A DNA stretch of 64,000 nucleotides, taken from a bacterium 0.1xD8-71. GTDB lineage: Bacteria > Bacillota > Clostridia > Lachnospirales > Lachnospiraceae. Within the stretch, counting starts at the first letter, position 1. Every line of letters starts with the position of its first letter. Both the position numbers and the translations under genes were made by a program. The stretch covers positions 124,001 to 188,000 of the forward strand of contig RAYR01000001.1 of NCBI GenBank assembly GCA_003612405.1. Direction: 5' to 3'. Of the stretch, positions 3,624-63,401 are shown one piece after another. A model generated the notes under the pieces. That model was not told the origin of the DNA. It did no database searches and saw only the letters and a program-made list of their open reading frames with translations.

Positions 3624-4676
3624 ATGACAGAATTAAAAAAATCCGATTTTTATTTTGAACTGCCGGAAGAATTGATTGCCCAGGATCCACTGGAAGATCG
3701 TTCGTCATCCAGGCTTCTTGTGCTGGATAAGGTAACTGGTAAGACAAAACATCATGTATTTAAAGAAATCTTAGAATATTTAAGGCCAGGCGATTGTCTG
3801 GTCTTAAATAACACCAAAGTACTGCCGGCCAGGCTGTATGGAGTCAAGGAGGATACCGGCGCGGCCATTGAGGTACTGCTTCTGAAACGAAAAGAAAACG
3901 ATGTGTGGGAGACGCTGGTAAAGCCCGGGAAGAAGGCAAGACCTGGCACCAGACTTCTGTTTGGGGACGGATGTCTGCGGGCAGAGGTCTTAGAGGTGGT
4001 GGAAGAGGGAAACCGTCTCATCCGGTTTTCCTATGAAGGGATCTTTGAGGAAATACTGGATCGTCTTGGAGAGATGCCCCTGCCCCCTTATATTACCCAT
4101 AAGCTCCAGGATAAGAACCGTTACCAGACTGTGTATGCGAAGTATGAAGGTTCTGCGGCGGCGCCCACGGCAGGGCTGCATTTTACGGATCAGCTGCTTT
4201 CGCAGATTGCGGACAAAGGAGTAGAGACGGCTTATGTGACGCTCCATGTGGGACTCGGTACTTTTCGTCCGGTGAAAGTGGACAATCTTTTAGAACATCA
4301 TATGCACTCCGAATATTATGAAGTGACCCAAGAGGCGGCGGATAAGATTAACAGGGTGAAGGTGGCTGGAGGCCGGATCATCTGTGTGGGCACCACCAGC
4401 TGTAGAACGGTGGAGAGCGCGGCAGATGAGAAAGGGATGGTACAGGCAGGGTGCGGTAACACAGAGATATTTATTTATCCGGGGTATCAGTTTAAAGTGC
4501 TGGACTGTCTGATTACCAACTTTCATCTTCCGGAGTCCACGCTTGTGATGCTGGTCAGTGCTCTGGCAGGCAGGGAGAATGTGCTTGCAGCTTATCAGGA
4601 GGCCATCAGGGAGCGGTATCGGTTTTTTAGTTTTGGGGATGCCATGTTTATAACAGACAACTGCTTTATATCATAA
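3624..4676 (+). CDS. queA: S-adenosylmethionine:tRNA ribosyltransferase-isomerase
   Basis: QueA transfers and isomerises the ribosyl part of SAM onto 7-deazaguanine in the tRNA wobble position, giving epoxyqueuosine. The 350-residue protein shows the family start ([16 protein letters not shown]), the [13 protein letters not shown] segment, PTAGLHFT and [19 protein letters not shown]. The frame stays open about 150 bases upstream, but family homology begins at the ATG at 3624, which has an AGAGG ribosome site. No tgt gene follows directly; a response regulator gene begins 17 bases later, so queuosine and signalling genes may share a transcript. Confidence 0.96.
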
Positions 4677-4693
4677 AAGGATGTGGACTTGTC

Positions 4694-5395
4694 ATGGAAA
4701 TTTTCTATGTGGAAGATGATGAGGATATTGCCAGGTCTGTCAGGCAATACCTTGTACAGAACGATTACTGCGTATCGGTGTATCCTACCATACAGGAGGC
4801 GAAAGAAGCTTTGACAGCGGATCGTCCTTCTTTGGTATTGTTGGACTGGAATATGCCGGACGGACAGGGAAGCACGCTGTGTAAGTGGATTCGGGACAGC
4901 TGCAAGGATCTGCCGGTCATTTTCCTGACGGTGCGCGGCGATTCCAGGGATATTGTGGATGGGTTTGCCTGCGGGGCGGATGATTATGTGGTCAAGCCCT
5001 TTGCACTGGAAGTCCTGCTTTCACGGATGCAGGCGGTTCTTAGAAGGACGGGAGATACTTCGACAAGATATCTGTCCTGTGACGGCATTATACTGGACAG
5101 GGAAGGGATGCATGTCAGATGTGGGGAGGAAGAGATAGCTTTAAGTCCATCGGAGTACCGCCTGCTTTTATTGCTTATGGAGAACAAAGGCAGGATATTG
5201 AAAAGAGAGCAGATTCTGGAGGCTTTGTGGGACGTTGAAGGGAATTTTGTCAATGACAATACGCTTACAGTTACCCTGAAGCGTCTGCGGGAGAAATTAC
5301 ATCAGCCCGCCTGTATCAAAACGGTCAGAAGTATCGGTTACCGGATGGAAGAAACCATATGCAGGAAAGAAAACAGAAGGACGGAAAATAAATGA
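4694..5395 (+). CDS. OmpR/PhoB-type response regulator
   Basis: The N-terminal receiver domain has the acidic pocket (EDDED, residues 7-11), the phosphoacceptor Asp51 in LVLLDWNMPDG, and the conserved Lys in DYVVKPFALE. A C-terminal winged helix follows, with ALWDVEGNFVNDNTLTV and KTVRSIGYRM. It acts in the cytosol as a DNA-binding activator once phosphorylated. The partner is almost certainly the histidine kinase at 6206, with one unrelated gene between them. A Pho-box-like direct repeat before the ABC transporter genes (7207-7224) is the likely target. Its stop overlaps the next start by ATGA, so the genes are translationally coupled. Confidence 0.94.
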   Translation: MEIFYVEDDEDIARSVRQYLVQNDYCVSVYPTIQEAKEALTADRPSLVLLDWNMPDGQGSTLCKWIRDSCKDLPVIFLTVRGDSRDIVDGFACGADDYVVKPFALEVLLSRMQAVLRRTGDTSTRYLSCDGIILDREGMHVRCGEEEIALSPSEYRLLLLLMENKGRILKREQILEALWDVEGNFVNDNTLTVTLKRLREKLHQPACIKTVRSIGYRMEETICRKENRRTENK

Positions 5396-6204
5396 TAAAG
5401 CTGGAACATGCATATTTATATAAATTACTGGAATTGCCCCAGGAGGTTATAGAATTACTGGATACCTATGGAGAAGAAAGAACAAAGAAAATCCCGGAGG
5501 AGATATATCGTAAACTGTTTGTGCGGGAAAAATGGGATGAAGGGGTCAAGGAGCTTCAAAGTTATCTGGGGGAGGATCCTGCGGGGATGAAGATATTATG
5601 GGAGCAGCTGGATATTCTTTGCTGTTATACTTATGGTGAATATGTGAAACAGGGCATAGGAGAAGATATTTTTGCCGCCACCATGAAATTTTGTACCAGA
5701 TTTTTATATGAACACCATGCAGTCTGGGGAACTTTCAAATATGTGTGGGCATGGTGGTTTCCCAGACAAATGACGCTTCAGGAAATTCGTTTCGGGGCAT
5801 TGGAGTATGAATTTGTCGATGGCAGGGAACGAGAAGTTGCCATTCACATTCCGTCTGATGCGGATATGAGTATGGACTCCATTCAGGCGTCTCTGGCTGC
5901 TTTCTATTCTTTCCGAAAAACCTATCATGCGGACTGGGAGGACGTCAGGCTGACATGCGATACATGGATGTTAATGCCGGAATTGCAGGAGTTTCTTGGC
6001 AAAGACTCCAGGATTGCAGGTTTTCAAAAACTGTTTCAGATTGATCAGATTGACAGGGAAGCAACATGGTATATGGGGTGGATTTATCCGGGATACGATA
6101 TAGTGGATGAAAGTCTGCCGGAAAAGACGCTTCTTCAAAAGATGTTGAAGAAATATCTTTTAGATGGAAAAAAGTTCGGCATTGCAAAGGGGTATATAAA
6201 ATAA
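5392..6204 (+). CDS. Acyltransferase-like protein of unknown role, inside a two-component operon
   Basis: This 270-residue soluble protein has no signal peptide or clear membrane segment. The general shape recalls clostridial proteins annotated as acyltransferase-domain/DUF5596 (N-terminal helical part, GNAT-like C-terminal half). That link is from memory and weak. Trp and Tyr are frequent, for example FKYVWAWWFPR and ATWYMGWIYPGYD. It is coupled to the response regulator by an ATGA overlap and separated from the kinase by only one base, so it is an integral operon member. It could modify the peptide signal, the envelope target or the transporter, but the sequence gives no direct proof. Confidence 0.6.
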   Translation: MIKLEHAYLYKLLELPQEVIELLDTYGEERTKKIPEEIYRKLFVREKWDEGVKELQSYLGEDPAGMKILWEQLDILCCYTYGEYVKQGIGEDIFAATMKFCTRFLYEHHAVWGTFKYVWAWWFPRQMTLQEIRFGALEYEFVDGREREVAIHIPSDADMSMDSIQASLAAFYSFRKTYHADWEDVRLTCDTWMLMPELQEFLGKDSRIAGFQKLFQIDQIDREATWYMGWIYPGYDIVDESLPEKTLLQKMLKKYLLDGKKFGIAKGYIK

Positions 6205-6205
6205 T

Positions 6206-7216
6206 ATGCAGGAAAGAAAACAGATAGGAATCTTAATAGGATTGGTTATGTCCGTCAGTCTGCTGACGGTTTTTTTTACGGCATTATTTGTGGCACTATC
6301 GTATCAGGCAGTATCCGGGAGAATGATATTTTGCATGGCGGCTGGAGTTTTCACGGCAGGAACCTGTTTTGCGGGTACGTTTGTGGGAATGAAGCATTTA
6401 TCCGATCGAAAGATACAGAAACTGACGGATTATCTGGAGAAAATCAATATGGGAAAAGCCGGCGTGCTCATGCCGTCAGGGGAGGATGCACTGTCCAGGC
6501 TTCAGGATGAAATCTATAAGACAGTGACCATGCTGTGTCAGACCAGAGATGAGGCATTGCGGGCTAAGAGTTATTATGCAAAGAACCTGTCTAATATTGC
6601 GCATCAGATTAAAACACCGATTACCGCCATTTCCCTGGCAGTGCAGATGAAACAGGATAAACCGGAAGAACAGCAGGAACAGATTTGCAGACAGGTGACA
6701 CGGCTTACACATCTGGAAGAAGCGTTGCTTTTACTGTCCAGAATCGATGCGGGAACACTTATGTTCAGGAAAGAAAGCGTAGATGTATTCACGCTTTTGA
6801 CGATGGCGGCGGATAATTTACAGGAGCTTTTCCGGCAGGCGCATGTTGACATTTCGATACCGGAACTGGGAGAGAAGACTGTTTATGCAGATTTTGACTG
6901 GACCATGGAGGAGGTGATGAATCTGCTTAAAAACTGTATGGAACATACGCCGCCTGGCGGATGTGTGTATTGTCAGTATGAGCAGAATCCGCTCTATACA
7001 CAGATTATGATATGGGATTTGGGGGAGGGATTTGTGAAAGAAGATATTTCGCATCTGTTTGAACGCTTCTATCGGGGACAAAATGCTGCCAATGGCGGTA
7101 TCGGTATTGGTCTCGCACTTGCAAAGGAGATTGTGGAAAGTCAAAACGGCACCATCCGGGCAGAAAACCGTGCAGAGGGCGGGGCATGTTTTGAAATCCG
7201 TTTCTATTGTCACTGA
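6206..7216 (+). CDS. Membrane sensor histidine kinase, short-sensor type
   Basis: Two membrane helices lie near residues 8-32 and 40-62 with only a short loop between them. This is the intramembrane-sensing layout typical of kinases that work with an ABC transporter. The phosphoacceptor His133 is in NIAHQIKTPIT. The ATPase domain has the N-box NLLKNCMEHT, the G1 box WDLGEGF and the G2 region GIGIGLALAKEI. It should phosphorylate the regulator at 4694. Its last codons contain the first half of the direct repeat in front of the ABC genes. Confidence 0.92.
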   Translation: MQERKQIGILIGLVMSVSLLTVFFTALFVALSYQAVSGRMIFCMAAGVFTAGTCFAGTFVGMKHLSDRKIQKLTDYLEKINMGKAGVLMPSGEDALSRLQDEIYKTVTMLCQTRDEALRAKSYYAKNLSNIAHQIKTPITAISLAVQMKQDKPEEQQEQICRQVTRLTHLEEALLLLSRIDAGTLMFRKESVDVFTLLTMAADNLQELFRQAHVDISIPELGEKTVYADFDWTMEEVMNLLKNCMEHTPPGGCVYCQYEQNPLYTQIMIWDLGEGFVKEDISHLFERFYRGQNAANGGIGIGLALAKEIVESQNGTIRAENRAEGGACFEIRFYCH

Positions 7217-50020: not shown

Positions 50021-50194
50021 GTGGAACAGGACAGGCAGGATGAAAGGTTTGACAGAGACGATGACAGGATATACAGCAACAGATGATAAGAAAGAAGAGA
50101 GACTGCAAAGGGAATATATGGAGAAAGCCGCTCTGCATGTGGCGGCTTTGAAGGAAGAACTGGGGCGTGTCCCCCGTGGATGTGTGGTTACCTT

Positions 50195-50215
50195 TGGCTG
50201 TCAAATGAATACCGA
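50195..50215. other. Left attachment junction (attL or attR) in miaB
   Basis: Host coding homology ends at the codons for GCQMN (50196-50210), and element sequence follows. The crossover core cannot be fixed without the other end. Large serine recombinases usually use a core of 2-3 bases, so the site is somewhere in or just before this stretch. Confidence 0.7.
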
Positions 50216-50226
50216 ACGCGAGATTG

Positions 50227-50252
50227 AAAAAGCCGCTAAAATGCGGCTTTTT
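50227..50252 (-). terminator. Bidirectional terminator between the junction and the recombinase gene
   Basis: AAAAAGCCGC (50227-50236), a 6-base loop and GCGGCTTTTT (50243-50252) form a perfect 10-bp stem with A and T tails. It ends the recombinase transcript and also stops transcription entering from miaB. Confidence 0.9.
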
Positions 50253-50328
50253 CTGTTTAGGGTAGAAATATAAGGGCAGAGAGTTAAAACGGGCAGGACG
50301 GGGCGCAGGGGAGCGCAGACGGGGCATT

Positions 50329-55433: not shown

Positions 55434-55711
55434 GCGAACAGGGAAACGGGACGCCGTTAGAAATCGGGTTATCGGTCGATCGGGCGGCGGCAGAGGACGC
55501 CCTGCGGATCCTGAACTGGTATTTTGACGAACGCCCGGATCAATACCTGATCCAGAAGCCGCGAACGGTCTATGACAGCGAGGGAAACGCCCGGACGACA
55601 GTTCGGTATCTGATAAAGCAAAGAGAACAGGCAGAAAGCGAGGAATCAAACCATGCAACAAATGACGATTTTCGATACAGTCAGGGACGAAACGCAGGAC
55701 TGGACGAATAA
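55430..55711 (+). CDS. Hypothetical protein overlapping the methyltransferase gene
   Basis: 93 residues: GLSVDRAAAEDALRILNWYF and PRTVYDSEGNARTTVRYLI. Soluble, mixed fold. It starts in an ATGA overlap with the MazG-like gene and its last 59 bases overlap the start of the C5 methyltransferase gene in another frame, an unusually long same-strand overlap. The overlapping end (ESEESNHATNDDFRYSQ) looks unstructured and may not be conserved. No known family. Confidence 0.6.
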   Translation: MSEQGNGTPLEIGLSVDRAAAEDALRILNWYFDERPDQYLIQKPRTVYDSEGNARTTVRYLIKQREQAESEESNHATNDDFRYSQGRNAGLDE

Positions 55712-57017
55712 GAAAGTCCGGCTGATTGAATTATTCGCGGGAATCGGCGCACAGGCGGCGGCACTTGAAAGAATCGGAGTTGATTTTGAAAAATATCTAA
55801 TATCGGAATGGGACACGGCGGCGACGAGATCATATAACGCGATACACGTCAAAGACTGGACGGATTACAGTCAAGGGATATCAGGAAATGAACTTCCGGG
55901 AATATTATTTGAAATCGGAATATCCACAAATGGAAAAAATCAAATGACAGAAGAACAGATCAGGAGAAAAGGCGAGAAGTGGCAAAGGAAAACGTATAAC
56001 GACTTCAAGGCGACGCGGAATATCGGATCCATAACAAACAGAACAGGGCAGGATCTAAAGATATGCGAACGCGACAAATATTTATACATATTGACATATT
56101 CGTTTCCGTGTCAGGATTTATCAGTTGCCGGAAATTGTAGGGGTATGAAAAAAGGATCAGGGACGCGATCAGGTTTATTGTGGGAGGTTGAACGGCTACT
56201 GACGGAAACAGAAGAACTTCCGCAAATTCTTTTAATGGAGAACGTGACACAGGTTCACAACAAAAGAAACGCCGCTGATTTTAATGACTGGATGAATTAT
56301 CTGCAGAAACGCGGGTATGTGAATTTTATATCTGATATAAACGCGGAGGATCACGGGATCGCACAGCATAGGATCAGGACGTTTGTTGTTTCCATATTGC
56401 GGGGCGGAGGATATCACTTTCCAGAGAAAAAACCGCTTGAAACAACGATAAACGATTATCTGGAAACATCAGTTAATGAAAGATATTACATAAATTCAGA
56501 ACGCGGAAAAGAACTGATTCAGAATTTGATTGAAAGCGGAACGGAAATCAAAGAGTTTCAGGCGATAGACGCGAATGTATCAGATCCAAAGATCATAACA
56601 TCGGCGACGTGTATCAAAACAAAAGTAAGAAGTATTCAAAACAAGAAAAGCGCAGAAACGGCGGTTGTAGAAAAGAGAATACACAGATTAGGAAATTACT
56701 TAGGGCATACGGGCGGAAATTTTGCGGGAACAGTATTCGGCGTGAATGGTTCCGCGCCTACGATAAGAACGCCGACGGGCGGAAATGTTCAGCCGATCAT
56801 CATTGACGCGACAGGAAATGAAATAAGGCTTCGGAGATTAACAGAACGCGAAGAATGGCGTCTAATGGGATTCACGGACGAACAGTTCGACGCGGCACTG
56901 GCGGCGGGGGCAACAAGCAGAGAATTATATCATCAAGCCGGGAATTCTATCGTCGTTCCGGTACTAATGGAAATATTTAGCAACATGAACCTAAAAGAAA
57001 GGATCAAACCATTATGA
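55653..57017 (+). CDS. DNA cytosine-C5 methyltransferase
   Basis: 454 residues: motif I LIELFAGIGAQAAALERIG, motif IV with catalytic Cys153 in FPCQDLSVAG, motif VI LMENVTQ, motif VIII AQHRIRTF, and motif X AGNSIVVPV. About 80 extra residues lie between motifs II and IV (TYNDFKATRNIGSITN). The target-recognition region is between VIII and IX. No restriction endonuclease gene is adjacent, so it is an orphan enzyme, probably protecting element DNA from host restriction. Leader GAGGAATCAAACCATG. Confidence 0.94.
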   Translation: MQQMTIFDTVRDETQDWTNKKVRLIELFAGIGAQAAALERIGVDFEKYLISEWDTAATRSYNAIHVKDWTDYSQGISGNELPGILFEIGISTNGKNQMTEEQIRRKGEKWQRKTYNDFKATRNIGSITNRTGQDLKICERDKYLYILTYSFPCQDLSVAGNCRGMKKGSGTRSGLLWEVERLLTETEELPQILLMENVTQVHNKRNAADFNDWMNYLQKRGYVNFISDINAEDHGIAQHRIRTFVVSILRGGGYHFPEKKPLETTINDYLETSVNERYYINSERGKELIQNLIESGTEIKEFQAIDANVSDPKIITSATCIKTKVRSIQNKKSAETAVVEKRIHRLGNYLGHTGGNFAGTVFGVNGSAPTIRTPTGGNVQPIIIDATGNEIRLRRLTEREEWRLMGFTDEQFDAALAAGATSRELYHQAGNSIVVPVLMEIFSNMNLKERIKPL

Positions 57018-57499: not shown

Positions 57500-57680
57500 A
57501 TATTGTAAAACGCCGGGGAAAATGCTTGACGTCATCGAAACAGAAAACCGGATATTCGTCAACATGGCGGGCGCATACATTCAGATTTTCGACGAAGGAT
57601 ATCCGGGGTTTATCCATAATATCCCGATCCGGTTTTGCCCGATGTGCGGGCGTGAATTGAGAGAGGGGGCGGCGGAATGA
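57492..57680 (+). CDS. Small zinc-ribbon protein
   Basis: 62 residues with CEYC at the start and FCPMCGREL near the end, so two CxxC pairs separated by about 43 residues that should bind one zinc. This type is common in early regions of firmicute prophages. It overlaps both neighbours by a few bases. Function unknown. Confidence 0.75.
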   Translation: MCEYCKTPGKMLDVIETENRIFVNMAGAYIQIFDEGYPGFIHNIPIRFCPMCGRELREGAAE

Positions 57681-58177
57681 ATATCGGGGAGCGTATAAAG
57701 AGATACCGGGAAGAAAAGCGGATGACACAGGAGGAAGTCGCCGATCGCGCCGGGGTTACGGCGGTATCGGTTTCAAGGTGGGAAAGAGGGACACGGGATC
57801 CCACATTCCGGGACGTTGAAAAGATCGCGGCGGCGTTGGGCGTCACTATGGAAGAATTGACACGGGAACCAAAGCGCGGAACAGGGCTTCGGAAAATCAT
57901 TGACGGGAAATTATACGACACAGAATCCGCCCTGATCCTGTTCGAGTTCAGACGGAAATATCAGGATCCGTTAAATCCGTTATTTTTCGGTAAAAATATG
58001 GTTCATGTCGAATGGGAGGACGCACAGTATCTAAAAACAGAACGGGGCGCGTATTTGTATTATTGCCCGAAACGGAAAGACCTTCAGGTCGTGACGGAAA
58101 GAGAGGTCAAAGACACGATCCGGAAACTGGACGCCGACGCATATATACGGATATTCGGTCAGGTAGAGGAAGGATAA
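57677..58177 (+). CDS. XRE-family regulator with an added C-terminal domain
   Basis: 166 residues. The helix-turn-helix is near residues 8-60 (MTQEEVADRAGVTAVSVSRWE). The rest (TGLRKIIDGKLYDTESALIL, AYLYYCPKRKDLQVV) is an unknown domain found in phage-type 'toxin-like' small proteins; this second link is a guess. Third XRE protein of the element and located mid-operon, so it may control late or maintenance genes. ATGA overlap with the previous gene. Confidence 0.8.
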   Translation: MNIGERIKRYREEKRMTQEEVADRAGVTAVSVSRWERGTRDPTFRDVEKIAAALGVTMEELTREPKRGTGLRKIIDGKLYDTESALILFEFRRKYQDPLNPLFFGKNMVHVEWEDAQYLKTERGAYLYYCPKRKDLQVVTEREVKDTIRKLDADAYIRIFGQVEEG

Positions 58178-58428: not shown

Positions 58429-59385
58429 ATGGGAAATAGTTTAGTTGATTTATTCAGATCGGAAACGGAATTCGACGTCAAAGCGTCGGAAATGTACGGA
58501 CTTATGAGGGAAGCCGCAAAAGCGGAATTTCTTCTGAACGCGGTTAAATGTGACGTTCCGCACACATACGCACGGCAGATTGCCACAGGAAAAAAAGAGG
58601 ACGCGCCGTTCATCGTGGCGGGGATCGACTTATCGTCCGGGAAAGATTGGACGCCGGGGCAGCAGGACACGGCAGCAGACGAAACGCCGGAACAGGAGCC
58701 GGAGCGGGCAGCAGGACAGGACGTCAGGTCGGGATCCGGATCCGTCGGTATTATCAGGAAGCACGAACAGCGCGTCGAATGGATCGACATTCAGGACATT
58801 ATCAGGAAAGGAAACGCGCCCGTATCACTTCCGCCCGGAACGGAAATCAATTTCACATTAAAGAACGGGGATCCGGCGTCGGTCGTCGTCGTGGGCGTGG
58901 ATCATTACGAAAAAGGGGACTGCGTGTTCTGGTTCCGTCGGATCATCGGGCGGCATTGCATGAACAGGGACGACACGAACGAAGGGCGTTTCCCTGATTC
59001 AGACATGAACGCGTATTTGAACGATGAAGTATTCGCCCTGCTGCCTGATGATTTACAGTCCGTGATCGCAGTACATAAAACAGTCCAGAAAACGGCGGAC
59101 GATGATATCGAAACGGAAGGACGCCTGTTCCTTATGTCGGTATATGAGGGACGCGGATCGAATGATTGGGCGGAATATAACGGAATCGACAAACAGTTCC
59201 CGTTTTTCGAGGAACGCCGGAACCGTGTAGCATATGACGAGGACGGGGATCCTGTCTGGTACTGGACTGCCGATCCGTCCGCCGCGAACACGACGACCTT
59301 TTGCCTTTTCAGCTACGGCGGCTCCAGCAACTACTTCTTCGCGTCGGCGGACGGCGGCGTCGCCCCGCTATTCGTCATCAAATAA
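58429..59385 (+). CDS. DUF6273/C-type-lectin-like protein, possible retroelement-diversified target
   Basis: 318 residues. The N-terminal ~50 (MGNSLVDLFRSETEF, EFLLNAVKCDVPHTYARQIA) resemble a conserved phage helical domain. An acidic linker (TPEQEPERAAGQD) precedes the C-terminal DUF6273-like domain (PPGTEINFTLKNGDPASVVV, DMNAYLNDEVFALLPDDLQS, NDWAEYNGIDKQFPFF). The last 40 residues (WYWTADPSAANTTTFCLFSY to ASADGGVAPLFVIK) match the pattern seen at variable C-termini of C-type-lectin-fold retroelement targets. A GC hairpin follows 10 bases after the stop. No reverse transcriptase or template repeat is in the window. Confidence 0.75.
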   Translation: MGNSLVDLFRSETEFDVKASEMYGLMREAAKAEFLLNAVKCDVPHTYARQIATGKKEDAPFIVAGIDLSSGKDWTPGQQDTAADETPEQEPERAAGQDVRSGSGSVGIIRKHEQRVEWIDIQDIIRKGNAPVSLPPGTEINFTLKNGDPASVVVVGVDHYEKGDCVFWFRRIIGRHCMNRDDTNEGRFPDSDMNAYLNDEVFALLPDDLQSVIAVHKTVQKTADDDIETEGRLFLMSVYEGRGSNDWAEYNGIDKQFPFFEERRNRVAYDEDGDPVWYWTADPSAANTTTFCLFSYGGSSNYFFASADGGVAPLFVIK

Positions 59386-59394
59386 TCAGGAATC

Positions 59395-59417
59395 GCGCCG
59401 CCCGGTAGCGGCGGCGC
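59395..59417. repeat. GC-rich hairpin just after the DUF6273 gene
   Basis: GCGCCGCC (59395-59402) and GGCGGCGC (59410-59417) form a perfect 8-bp stem with a 7-base loop and no T-run. It is not a terminator. Hairpins of this size just after the variable region help target homing in known diversity-generating retroelements. Confidence 0.65.
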
Positions 59418-59429
59418 AAGGTGGGGACT

Positions 59430-60124
59430 ATGTTAGACTTCGGATTTTACAATATGGACTGCAACGTCGCCCTGCCGGAGTTCCCGGACGATTATTTCGA
59501 TCTGGCGGTCGTGGATCCGCCGTATGGGATAAAGGTTTTTGCAAAGGACAACGCGTCCAGGTCGAAACTGGCAACGTCAAAAGCCTATAAGGAATACGCG
59601 GGCGGCGATCAGGTCGCCCCGGATCCTGAATATTTCGCGCAACTGAAAAGGATATCGAAAAATCAGATCATTTTCGGCGCGAATCATTTCATGGATAACA
59701 TTGTCGCGGGGTTCGGCGGCGTGTCGTCCCCGTGTTGGATCGTATGGGACAAACAGAACGGGCAGAACGACTTCGCGGACGGGGAACTTGCTTTCACGTC
59801 ATTTCAGACCGCCGTTCGGATATTCCGGTTTACATGGGCGGGTATGCGACAGGGGAACATGAGGGAAAAGGAAATCCGCATACATCCGACGCAAAACCCG
59901 TCGCCCTTTATGACTGGATATTTGCAAATTATACGCAGCGCGGGCAAAAGATAATTGATACACACGTCGGATCCGCGTCGTCCTTAATAGCGGCACACAA
60001 GGCGGGACTGCAGTTCGTTGGTTTTGAACTGGATCGGGAATATTACAAAGACGCCGCCGCCCGGTATGAGCGGGAAACGGCGCAGATATCAATATTTGAC
60101 TTTTTGGAACAGAAGGGAGAATAA
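59430..60124 (+). pseudogene. Beta-class DNA methyltransferase (DPPY), reading frame split
   Basis: The first frame has motif IV VVDPPYGIKVFAKD, then the target domain (NGQNDFADGELAFTSFQTAV) and ends with HPTQNPSPFMTG, off family. The -1 frame gives HPTQKPVALYDW-type continuation and motif I (KIIDTHVGSASSLIAAHKAG, FELDREYY) to the stop at 60124. The order IV - TRD - I makes it beta class (N6-adenine or N4-cytosine). The shift is at 59892-59900 (caa aac ccg). It is either a lost A, a sequencing error, or a -1 programmed shift on the heptamer A-AAC-CCG. AAGGTGGGG supports start 59430. Confidence 0.85.
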
Positions 60125-61738: not shown

Positions 61739-62443
61739 ATGTCAAAACGGAGAATCAGGGACAGAAAGAAAAGGATCAGGAGAATAAAAAGAATCCGGCG
61801 CGTGGTCTTATCAGGAACGGCGGTCGCGTCTGTCGCGGTAGTCGCGATAATTACATATCACACAATAACGCCGGAACAGGATAAAACGCCGGAGTCGATT
61901 GCGGTCATCCAGACGGAGCCGATCGCGCCGGAAATACATATTGACACAGAAAAGCAAGGGGAAACGCCGCGCACATATCAGGACGTCGATTTTGTCCCGC
62001 TGCCTGTCCCGATGACAGACACAGATCAGGAAATTGTTTTCGGTATCTGTCAGGAACACGGCGTCGCGTTCCCGCTTGTCATGGCGATTATAGAACACGA
62101 ATCGCATTTTGACAGGACGGCGCGTTCACAGTCCGGGGATTCCGGCTATATGCAGATAAACGATTGCAACGCGGAACGCCTGTCTGATTTAGGATTTTCG
62201 GATCTGTACGATCTGGAACAGAACGTCGGCGCGGGCGTTTATATCCTGAAAGAATTGTTTTCAAAGTATGAAGGCGACGCGACGTTTGTTCTTATGGCAT
62301 ACAACGCGGGAGAAAAAGGAGCGCGGGACATGAGGGAATCAGGAATCTATGAAACGGAATACACGGTAGAAATTTTGGAACGGGCGGAAGCCTTTTCTTC
62401 ATATATAGATAACGCCACAACAGAAAGAACAGGCGTTCGATAA
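61739..62443 (+). CDS. Lytic transglycosylase (SLT domain), membrane anchored
   Basis: 234 residues: a very basic start (KRRIRDRKKRIRRIKRIRR), one hydrophobic anchor (VVLSGTAVASVAVVAIITYH, residues ~21-40), a linker and the SLT domain. The SLT motifs are IIEHESHF (catalytic Glu), SGDSGYMQIN, ILKELFSKYEG and VLMAYNAGEKGARD. It faces outward and would cut peptidoglycan locally. Such enzymes serve conjugation machines as well as phage entry/tail parts. The leader contains GAATCAAACCAT but the start is further down with GGGCGGGG. Confidence 0.9.
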   Translation: MSKRRIRDRKKRIRRIKRIRRVVLSGTAVASVAVVAIITYHTITPEQDKTPESIAVIQTEPIAPEIHIDTEKQGETPRTYQDVDFVPLPVPMTDTDQEIVFGICQEHGVAFPLVMAIIEHESHFDRTARSQSGDSGYMQINDCNAERLSDLGFSDLYDLEQNVGAGVYILKELFSKYEGDATFVLMAYNAGEKGARDMRESGIYETEYTVEILERAEAFSSYIDNATTERTGVR

Positions 62444-62534: not shown

Positions 62535-63401
62535 ATGGGATCGAGAAAAAAATATATTGATGATTATGATTTTGAGGAATCATATAAAAAATCATTGGAG
62601 GATATGGAGCAGGATCAGATCGATCGTTACCTGAAAGAGAACAGGGCGGGGATTGCATATCAGACAAAGACAACAAAGGCGGGGGATCAACTGGAAGCGG
62701 ATATATACCCGGTATTCGGCAGCAGGAAAGACGCGCCCCGGACAAAGAGGGGGAAAGAGAGCCGCCCGGCACAAAAGAATCTGAACAGCAAAAGGGCGAA
62801 GCGGTATCTGAATAATTTAGTTAGTGCAAATTTCGGGGAAGGGGATCTATGGTGTACGTTCACATATGACGACGCACACCTTCCGGCGGATCAGGATGAA
62901 GCGGATCGGATATTCGGGAATTTCATCAGGAGGATAAACAGGCGGAGGAAAAAGGCGGGACTGGATAATGTGAAATACATATGTGTGACGGAGTATCAGG
63001 AGGAGGAAGGGAAAAAGACGCGTTGTCATCATCACGTCATTATGTCCGGGGATGTGAACCGGGACGAATTAGAAAAGATATGGGGGCAGGGAAAGAGGAA
63101 CCAGACGCGCCGGATCGATCCGGATCCTGACACACATATCGCCGGGATCGTGAATTATATCAGCAAGGATCCAAAAGGGCGGAAGCGGTGGAGGGCGTCA
63201 AAGAACCTGAAAAAGCCGATAGTGACGAAATCCGTCTGTCGGTTCGGGAAAAGGACAGCGGAGCGCATGGCGACAGACCGGGCATATCTGGAGAGCAGGA
63301 TCAAAAAATCATATCCCGGTTATAAATTCATAGACGCGGAAGTCAGGGTAAATGATATCAACGGCGGATTCTACATATACGCCCGAATGGTTCGGGATTG
63401 A
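62535..63401 (+). CDS. HUH-endonuclease replication initiator (rolling-circle Rep-like)
   Basis: 288 residues: a charged N-terminal ~95, then the three Rep motifs in order. Motif I is LWCTFTYDDAHLP, motif II is RCHHHVIMSG (HUH metal site), and motif III is VNYISKDPKG with Tyr and Lys in the Y-x2-K spacing. A single catalytic Tyr is implied. The C-terminal part has no helicase domain, so host helicase would be needed. GGGGGCGG precedes the ATG. It fits rolling-circle replication of an excised circular element, or replication of a small-genome phage type. Confidence 0.85.
   Translation: MGSRKKYIDDYDFEESYKKSLEDMEQDQIDRYLKENRAGIAYQTKTTKAGDQLEADIYPVFGSRKDAPRTKRGKESRPAQKNLNSKRAKRYLNNLVSANFGEGDLWCTFTYDDAHLPADQDEADRIFGNFIRRINRRRKKAGLDNVKYICVTEYQEEEGKKTRCHHHVIMSGDVNRDELEKIWGQGKRNQTRRIDPDPDTHIAGIVNYISKDPKGRKRWRASKNLKKPIVTKSVCRFGKRTAERMATDRAYLESRIKKSYPGYKFIDAEVRVNDINGGFYIYARMVRD

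What the first reader, a model, noticed from the sequence alone, without database searches (positions are those of the whole stretch)
59262..59417. Candidate diversity-generating retroelement target with hairpin, reverse transcriptase not in the window
The protein ends in a DUF6273/C-type-lectin pattern (YWTADPSAANTTTFC, then ASADGGVAPLFVIK). The middle codons of this stretch are mostly NNC (AGC TAC GGC GGC TCC AGC AAC TAC), as expected when AAC codons of a template are mutated at A. The region is followed by invariant-looking GC-rich DNA and, 10 bases after the stop, an 8-bp GC stem with 7-base loop. These are the variable region, IMH-like end and hairpin of a DGR target. The element codes many C-ending codons in general, which weakens the codon argument.
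Basis: partly seen in the sequence, partly recalled or inferred. Interest (0 to 1): 0.75.

Follow-up and report, generated by a model that had tools for sequence, protein, structure and literature searches.

The report
Self-mutating early gene of gut prophage
The flagged gene end is a real target of a phage element that rewrites chosen stretches of its own genes, and this target sits among the phage's DNA-replication genes rather than its tail genes, which suggests that the phage diversifies a protein working inside the bacterial cell.

Summary
VR1 (window 59257-59367) differs from TR at 14 of 111 positions, all template adenines. In related phages every counted mismatch is at a template adenine (VR1 91 of 91 in 7 phages, VR2 70 of 70 in 5; none at 944 non-adenine sites), although their templates differ from each other at up to 11 non-adenine positions: the remote gene is repeatedly rewritten. 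The hairpin is real and also follows VR2. DGRs, two-target DGRs and a non-structural second target (Quimbyvirus) are published. What stands out is location: 12 of 24 DGR-bearing records scanned have a distal second VR, next to or near methylase, polymerase, SSB or Rep genes wherever neighbours could be read; in phage nd12 that target is fused to DUF3310. I infer an early intracellular binding protein, perhaps for counter-defence; function is untested.

The parts
58429..59385 (+). DGR target gene 1 (318 aa, DUF6273 at residues 178-318)
   Evidence: orthologs aligned; dN/dS 0.16-0.28 outside the VR against six orthologs
59257..59367 (+). variable repeat VR1, 111 bp; 14 mismatches to the template, all at template adenines
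59341..59367 (+). GC-rich 3' end of VR1, 27 bp identical to the template (IMH-like)
59395..59417 (+). hairpin after the stop: 8-bp GC stem, 7-base loop; same stem after VR2 with loop CGACAGC
55653..57017 (+). context: DNA methyltransferase (PHROG 116, E 5.5e-55)
57677..58177 (+). context: HTH transcriptional regulator
59421..60124 (+). context: methyltransferase-like gene (DPPYG motif, named by eye), split here into two overlapping ORFs
   Evidence: single ORF in G032, G100 and G103
62535..63401 (+). context: replication initiation protein
   Evidence: PHROG 3584, E 1.6e-81; PF23343
50329..52065 (-). context: recombinase/integrase-like gene near the left end of the prophage (named by eye)
   Evidence: homologs next to the RT-lysin end in relatives

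Best explanation
Window 59257-59417 is the remote second target of a complete prophage diversity-generating retroelement. SHOWN: template, RT and a proximal VR in a tail-region gene lie about 22 kb away in the same prophage; both VRs differ from the template only at adenines, here and in the relatives counted; each VR keeps to its own phage's template at every non-adenine site; both are followed by a hairpin; the target gene outside the VR is under purifying selection. INFERRED from phage BPP-1 work: the RT copies template RNA with errors at adenines and the cDNA replaces VR1 and VR2 through the shared GC-rich 3' end and the hairpin. INFERRED from context: the VR1 protein is made with the methylase and replication genes and works inside the cell as a DUF6273 binding protein whose surface is diversified to follow a changing host factor, most likely in phage-host conflict. 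My likelihoods: DGR target about 0.97; early, non-virion protein about 0.7; counter-defence about 0.35.
For: Template, RT and VR2 on the same contig. Adenine-only mismatches: 15/15 and 16/16 in this prophage over 112 bp; 91/91 (VR1, 7 phages) and 70/70 (VR2, 5 phages) over the core, 0 at 944 non-adenine sites; VR1 against a foreign template shows 1-14 non-adenine mismatches in 6 phages. dN/dS 0.16-0.28 outside the VR. Hairpins at both VRs. Early context here and of the distal target in Shimadzu, Dulem 34, nd4, Fontainebleau and Toutatis by annotation, and in G100, G103, G120 and MT835491 by ORFs read by eye. DUF3310-DUF6273 fusion in nd12; DUF3310 is implicated in the nucleotide kinase activity of T7 gp1.7 and lies in predicted early regions (PMC10700055, passages).
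Against: No expression, proteomics or activity data. Early position is inferred from neighbours; Lelie's neighbours are all hypothetical. Lack of hydrophobic segments in the distal targets (peak 1.17 or less, 12 of 12) does not discriminate, since most proximal targets are also low. AlphaFold models were poor (pLDDT 48 and 56) and fold searches gave no match at E <= 0.001, so the C-type-lectin fold was not confirmed here. 12 of 24 scanned DGR records have no distal VR. The accessory ORF has no Pfam match and only E 0.49 to Shimadzu's Avd.
Confidence: 0.7

Rival explanations
1. VR1 is a true DGR target, but its protein is a virion component (minor tail or head-decoration receptor-binding protein) whose gene merely lies in the early region; both targets serve adsorption. 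PMC10743442 proposes receptor binding for the comparable targets of nd4 and nd12.
For: DUF6273 occurs in proximal tail-region targets too (weak, E 0.015, in this prophage's VR2 protein; VR2 and VR1 domains are 33-36% identical); most DGR targets of viral clades 1, 4 and 6 are annotated as tail proteins (PMC8144416, passages).
Against: Gene position among methylase/replication genes in several lineages; fusion to DUF3310 in nd12; N-terminal parts differ from the tail protein.
Confidence: 0.25
2. VR1 is a bystander: a duplicated domain that the DGR overwrites but that gives no advantage.
For: The retrohoming needs only local homology and a hairpin (PMC3240598, passages), so stray targets are possible.
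Against: Purifying selection outside the VR, dN/dS 0.16-0.28; distal targets with different N-terminal parts in nine lineages by my grouping.
Confidence: 0.05
3. No DGR: chance C-ending codons plus a terminator-like hairpin.
Against: Template and RT found; adenine-only mismatches, p about 1e-10; no T-run after the hairpin.
Confidence: 0.01

Closest known systems
Roseburia phage Shimadzu DGR (LR596903; the original paper was not held, known through PMC11792537)
   Same: Two VRs on one template, one in a tail fibre gene, one in orf43 next to a DNA methyltransferase and Erf/SSB/Rep; orf43 is 31% identical to the VR1 protein over residues 118-318 (E 5e-15); RT 46% over residues 7-349; hairpin after both VRs
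   Different: N-terminal third of the VR1 protein absent; hairpin sequences and loops differ; accessory protein only E 0.49 similar
Quimbyvirus DGR (PMC8008677, abstract and passages)
   Same: Two targets, one structural, one distal among methyltransferase and defence-related genes, proposed to act in phage-host conflict
   Different: Bacteroides phage; RT in three overlapping frames; second target on the opposite strand; its sequence was not compared here
Faecalibacterium phages Lelie/CP11 and phages nd4/nd12 (PMC11792537 sections 30, 31, 33; PMC10743442 abstract and passages)
   Same: Two DUF6273-type or C-type-lectin targets on one template, the smaller one distal
   Different: VR followed by further coding sequence and no clear hairpin in Lelie, nd12 and nd4; proximal target is a tentaclin in nd4 and nd12; nd12 distal target carries DUF3310
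Bordetella phage BPP-1 DGR (hairpin work: PMC3240598, abstract and passages)
   Same: C-terminal VR followed within about 30 bases by an 8-bp GC stem; loops here contain the letters of the GRNA consensus
   Different: Two targets here, one in BPP-1 (recalled); 7-base loop or bulged stem with a 4-base loop, and the lowest-energy fold does not put GRNA at the apex

Membership tests
Diversity-generating retroelement | Reverse transcriptase gene near the template | tested here: met
   RVT_1 E 2.9e-15 in the 404-aa ORF, 166 bp after the template; YMDD and GSQVSQ motifs seen in the translation, the SQ-type motif as a DGR-RT hallmark is recalled
Diversity-generating retroelement | Template repeat nearly identical to a variable repeat at the end of a coding gene | tested here: met
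   TR, VR1, VR2
Diversity-generating retroelement | Mismatches confined to template adenines | tested here: met
   161 of 161 in 12 VR copies
Diversity-generating retroelement | GC-rich 3' end and hairpin at the target, absent at the template | tested here: met
   27 bp identical end; hairpins at both VRs, template region of this prophage has only an unrelated 6-bp stem
Diversity-generating retroelement | Accessory variability determinant (Avd) | tested here: inconclusive
   203-aa ORF in the right place, conserved in relatives, but no Pfam match at E <= 1 and E 0.49 to Shimadzu's Avd
[quoted passage not shown]
   DUF6273 met; models pLDDT 48 and 56, no fold match at E <= 0.001; lectin fold of DUF6273 targets is reported in PMC10743442
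Diversity-generating retroelement | Retrohoming activity | not testable with these tools
   needs culture or reads; concerted TR/VR evolution is indirect
Two-target phage DGR with a non-structural second target (Quimbyvirus/Shimadzu kind) | Second VR far from the RT, on the same template | tested here: met
   VR1 22.2 kb from the template in the prophage
Two-target phage DGR with a non-structural second target (Quimbyvirus/Shimadzu kind) | Second target lies outside the structural gene block | tested here: met
   head and tail genes follow later (named by eye)
Two-target phage DGR with a non-structural second target (Quimbyvirus/Shimadzu kind) | Second target protein is not in the virion | not testable with these tools
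   needs virion proteomics

The most novel reading that the evidence does not exclude
Many gut phages of Firmicutes share one arrangement in which a single DGR template drives hypermutation of two proteins at once: a tail protein that meets the outside of the host and an early cytoplasmic DUF6273 protein that meets something inside it. That would couple receptor switching to the evolution of a hypervariable intracellular inhibitor, perhaps of restriction or other defences, so that one mutational system works on both barriers that a phage must pass when it changes host.
Probability: 0.35. Interest if true: 0.85.

Novelty: new member of a known kind. Interest (0 to 1): 0.55.

Why it matters
Phage DGR targets are mostly described as tail proteins, and the role of second targets is called unclear in the papers seen. 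Here the second target is demonstrably rewritten (adenine-only changes, in step with each phage's own template), is kept by purifying selection outside the variable part, and lies among replication and methylase genes. If it acts inside the cell, phages use targeted hypermutation against an intracellular host factor, and the conserved gene gives a concrete protein to delete, express and use as bait.

Tried and rejected
Chance C-rich codons and a plain terminator: rejected. Structure: two AlphaFold jobs of low confidence, two PDB fold searches without a match at E <= 0.001, no solved-structure match to the profile at E <= 1. Hydropathy as a test of location was not discriminating. Attachment core: the longest identical stretch between the two assumed prophage ends was 9 bp and unconvincing. 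In one search the row for this prophage's distal VR was mis-registered by one base; searches are used instead. Dropped before the count: the VR2 of Lachnoclostridium An196 (one extra codon), two VR copies with no template on the contig or cut very short (L012, L015), the VR of L097 (no template fetched) and the VRs of L086 and L090 (contig ends, template not on the contig). Kept: the VR of contig 3300006204_000151, which is probably an assembly chimera (see noticed), and a 70-bp VR1 of L014.

Full report
OBSERVATION. The window is G000:C11:124001-188000. ORF 58429-59385 encodes 318 residues with DUF6273 at residues 178-318 (E 2e-11).

THE MISSING PARTS. An RVT_1 search of the 4.1-Mb genome gave one match at E <= 0.001, C11:206026-206553, in a 404-residue ORF about 22 kb downstream of the finding and 18 kb beyond the window. 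Reading that region and comparing it with the flagged stretch gave, in order: a second variable repeat (VR2) at the end of a 375-residue tail-region gene, a 203-residue ORF in the accessory-gene position, the template (TR), and the RT. A genome search with the 111-bp template found three places only: TR, VR1, VR2. The hairpin stem recurs after VR2; near the template the best stem is an unrelated 6 bp.

ADENINE TEST. In this prophage 15 of 15 (VR1) and 16 of 16 (VR2) mismatches over 112 bp lie on the 30 template adenines (p about 1e-10 and 1.5e-11). Relatives were collected and their repeats listed. Over the 111-bp core, 91 of 91 mismatches of VR1 in 7 phages (one only 70 bp long) and 70 of 70 of VR2 in 5 are on template adenines, with none at 538 + 406 non-adenine sites (copies left out are named under Tried and rejected). 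Templates of different phages differ at up to 11 positions where neither has adenine, yet each VR counted matches its own template at every non-adenine site; VR1 against a foreign template shows 1 to 14 such mismatches in 6 phages. The simplest reading is that VR1, though far away, is repeatedly overwritten from the local template. Outside the VR dN/dS is 0.16 to 0.28 against six orthologs; inside it dN exceeds dS in five of six comparisons (one only marginally) and is slightly below in the sixth, on few synonymous changes.

THE PHAGE. Marker genes placed on relatives show four metagenomic contigs (L009, L012, L014, L020) that run from the RT through a lysin into the integrase, as expected of an excised circular or concatemeric genome; in this prophage those ends are about 36 kb apart by the borders I assumed. 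This suggests an active phage family. Of 15 VR copies on IMG/VR contigs of this family, 4 are cut by the contig end (L014, L015, L086, L090), which fits within-sample variation but can also come from the repeats themselves.

WHERE THE TARGET LIES. Around VR1 are a DNA methyltransferase (55653-57017), an HTH regulator (57677-58177), a second methyltransferase-like gene (59421-60124, by eye) and a replication initiator (62535-63401). I scanned 24 DGR-bearing records for template/VR pairs, 10 and 14 (60-base windows, at most 2 non-adenine and at least 5 adenine mismatches, both strands). 12 of 24 have a VR more than 10 kb from the template plus a proximal one within 2.1 kb: this prophage, G100, G103, Shimadzu, Dulem 34, Lelie, Toutatis, nd12, nd4, Fontainebleau, MT835491, G120; I group them as nine lineages (the first three together, Lelie with Toutatis). 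The listed best windows have 0 or 1 non-adenine mismatch. The other 12 show a proximal VR only: MT835543, MT835552, Brigit, Roos, MT835569, ACA1, ANMV-1, G107, G109, G114, G117, G119. Five records were read over 50,000 bases only (Lelie, Toutatis, Brigit, Roos, MT835491) and several contigs are fragments. The records were picked by RT similarity from larger lists (85 phage records, 31 IMG/VR loci), so 12 of 24 is not an unbiased rate. Neighbours of the distal gene: methyltransferase and Erf/SSB/Rep (Shimadzu); adenine methylase and, further on, rep (Dulem 34); DNA polymerase III alpha (nd4); DNA polymerase I and, one gene on, a helicase (Fontainebleau); cytosine methylases upstream and a replication protein downstream within 5 kb (Toutatis). 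By eye from ORFs: methylase and Rep in G100 and G103 (Rep confirmed), helicase- and methylase-like ORFs in G120, an SSB-like ORF about 3 kb away in MT835491. Lelie's neighbours are hypothetical. nd12's distal gene is surrounded by hypothetical genes, but its relative L173 has methylase-, MazG- and Rep-like ORFs by eye. The nd12 distal target is a DUF3310-DUF6273 fusion (E 2.5e-16 and 5.7e-10); Pfam DUF6273 is above its cut-off in the distal targets of Shimadzu, Dulem 34, nd12, nd4 and MT835491 and below it in Lelie and Fontainebleau.

MECHANISM. Shown: template, RT, two VRs, adenine specificity, agreement of each VR with its own template, hairpins. Inferred from BPP-1 work (PMC3240598, abstract and passages): the GC-rich end and the hairpin serve target recognition. 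The loops CGGTAGC, CGACAGC and CGGCAGC contain letters of the GRNA consensus, but the lowest-energy folds pair them differently. Hairpins follow both VRs in this family and in Shimadzu, Fontainebleau and MT835491, only the proximal VR in Dulem 34, and none or only weak 6-bp stems were seen in Lelie, Toutatis, nd12, nd4 and G120, so the hairpin is not universal. Inferred from context only: early expression, intracellular action, diversification against a host factor.

PRIOR ART. PMC11792537 (sections 30, 31, 33) describes Lelie and CP11 with large and small DUF6273 targets of unclear function and cites Shimadzu for a tail protein plus a protein of unknown function. PMC10743442 (abstract and passages) describes nd4 and nd12, notes the DUF3310-like motif and proposes receptor binding; the terms 'early' and 'replication' gave no hit in its main text. 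PMC8008677 (abstract and passages) reports a non-structural second target in a defence-related island of Quimbyvirus. PMC8144416 (passages) finds mostly tail proteins among targets of viral DGR clades. So neither the DGR, nor two targets, nor a non-structural second target is new. In my searches (open-licence library, listings only apart from the papers named) I saw no statement that second targets recur in the replication region across Firmicutes gut phages; the original Shimadzu paper was not held.

VERDICT. Observation confirmed, interpretation supported. A new member of a known kind; the interest lies in the remote early target.

Noticed in passing
window 50040-50273; L003:13715-15205; L009:9872-10147, L012:3029-3304, L014:4622-4882, L020:5777-6037: The prophage seems to sit inside a miaB-like gene (name by eye): the left end holds a truncated N-terminal fragment, and the right-end ORF (496 aa) has a different N-terminus; about the first 90 residues of that N-terminus are also found on four phage contigs beside the integrase (54-82% identity), so the phage may carry a replacement gene head that restores the gene on integration.
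   Followed up: partly
window 59421-60124; after the target gene in L011 and L012: The methyltransferase-like gene next to VR1 is frame-split in three of six phages examined (this prophage, L011, L012), apparently at different places, and is one ORF in G032, G100 and G103; phase variation, decay or sequencing error not told apart.
   Followed up: partly
L009 (IMGVR_UViG_3300006204_000151) 3910-7087: A VR1-type target lies directly before the accessory ORF and RT, in place of the tail target, while another contig of the same sample (L086) ends inside VR2: probably an assembly chimera through the shared VR and hairpin, though a real recombination was not excluded.
   Followed up: partly
L089:4726-4839 (Lachnoclostridium An196 VR2): This VR is 3 bases longer than its template (one extra codon inside the variable stretch), so length also varies.
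   Followed up: no
L101:31285-32178 (phage nd12); L172: DGR target fused to DUF3310; L172 matches the fusion over residues 1-294 at 91%, while L173-L177 match from residue 81 on.
   Followed up: partly
window 61739-62443: A transglycosylase/endolysin-like protein with a hydrophobic N-terminal segment (by eye) lies in the early region between the DGR target and rep; a cell wall hydrolase and an Slt70-like protein also lie near the early target in Shimadzu and Dulem 34.
   Followed up: no
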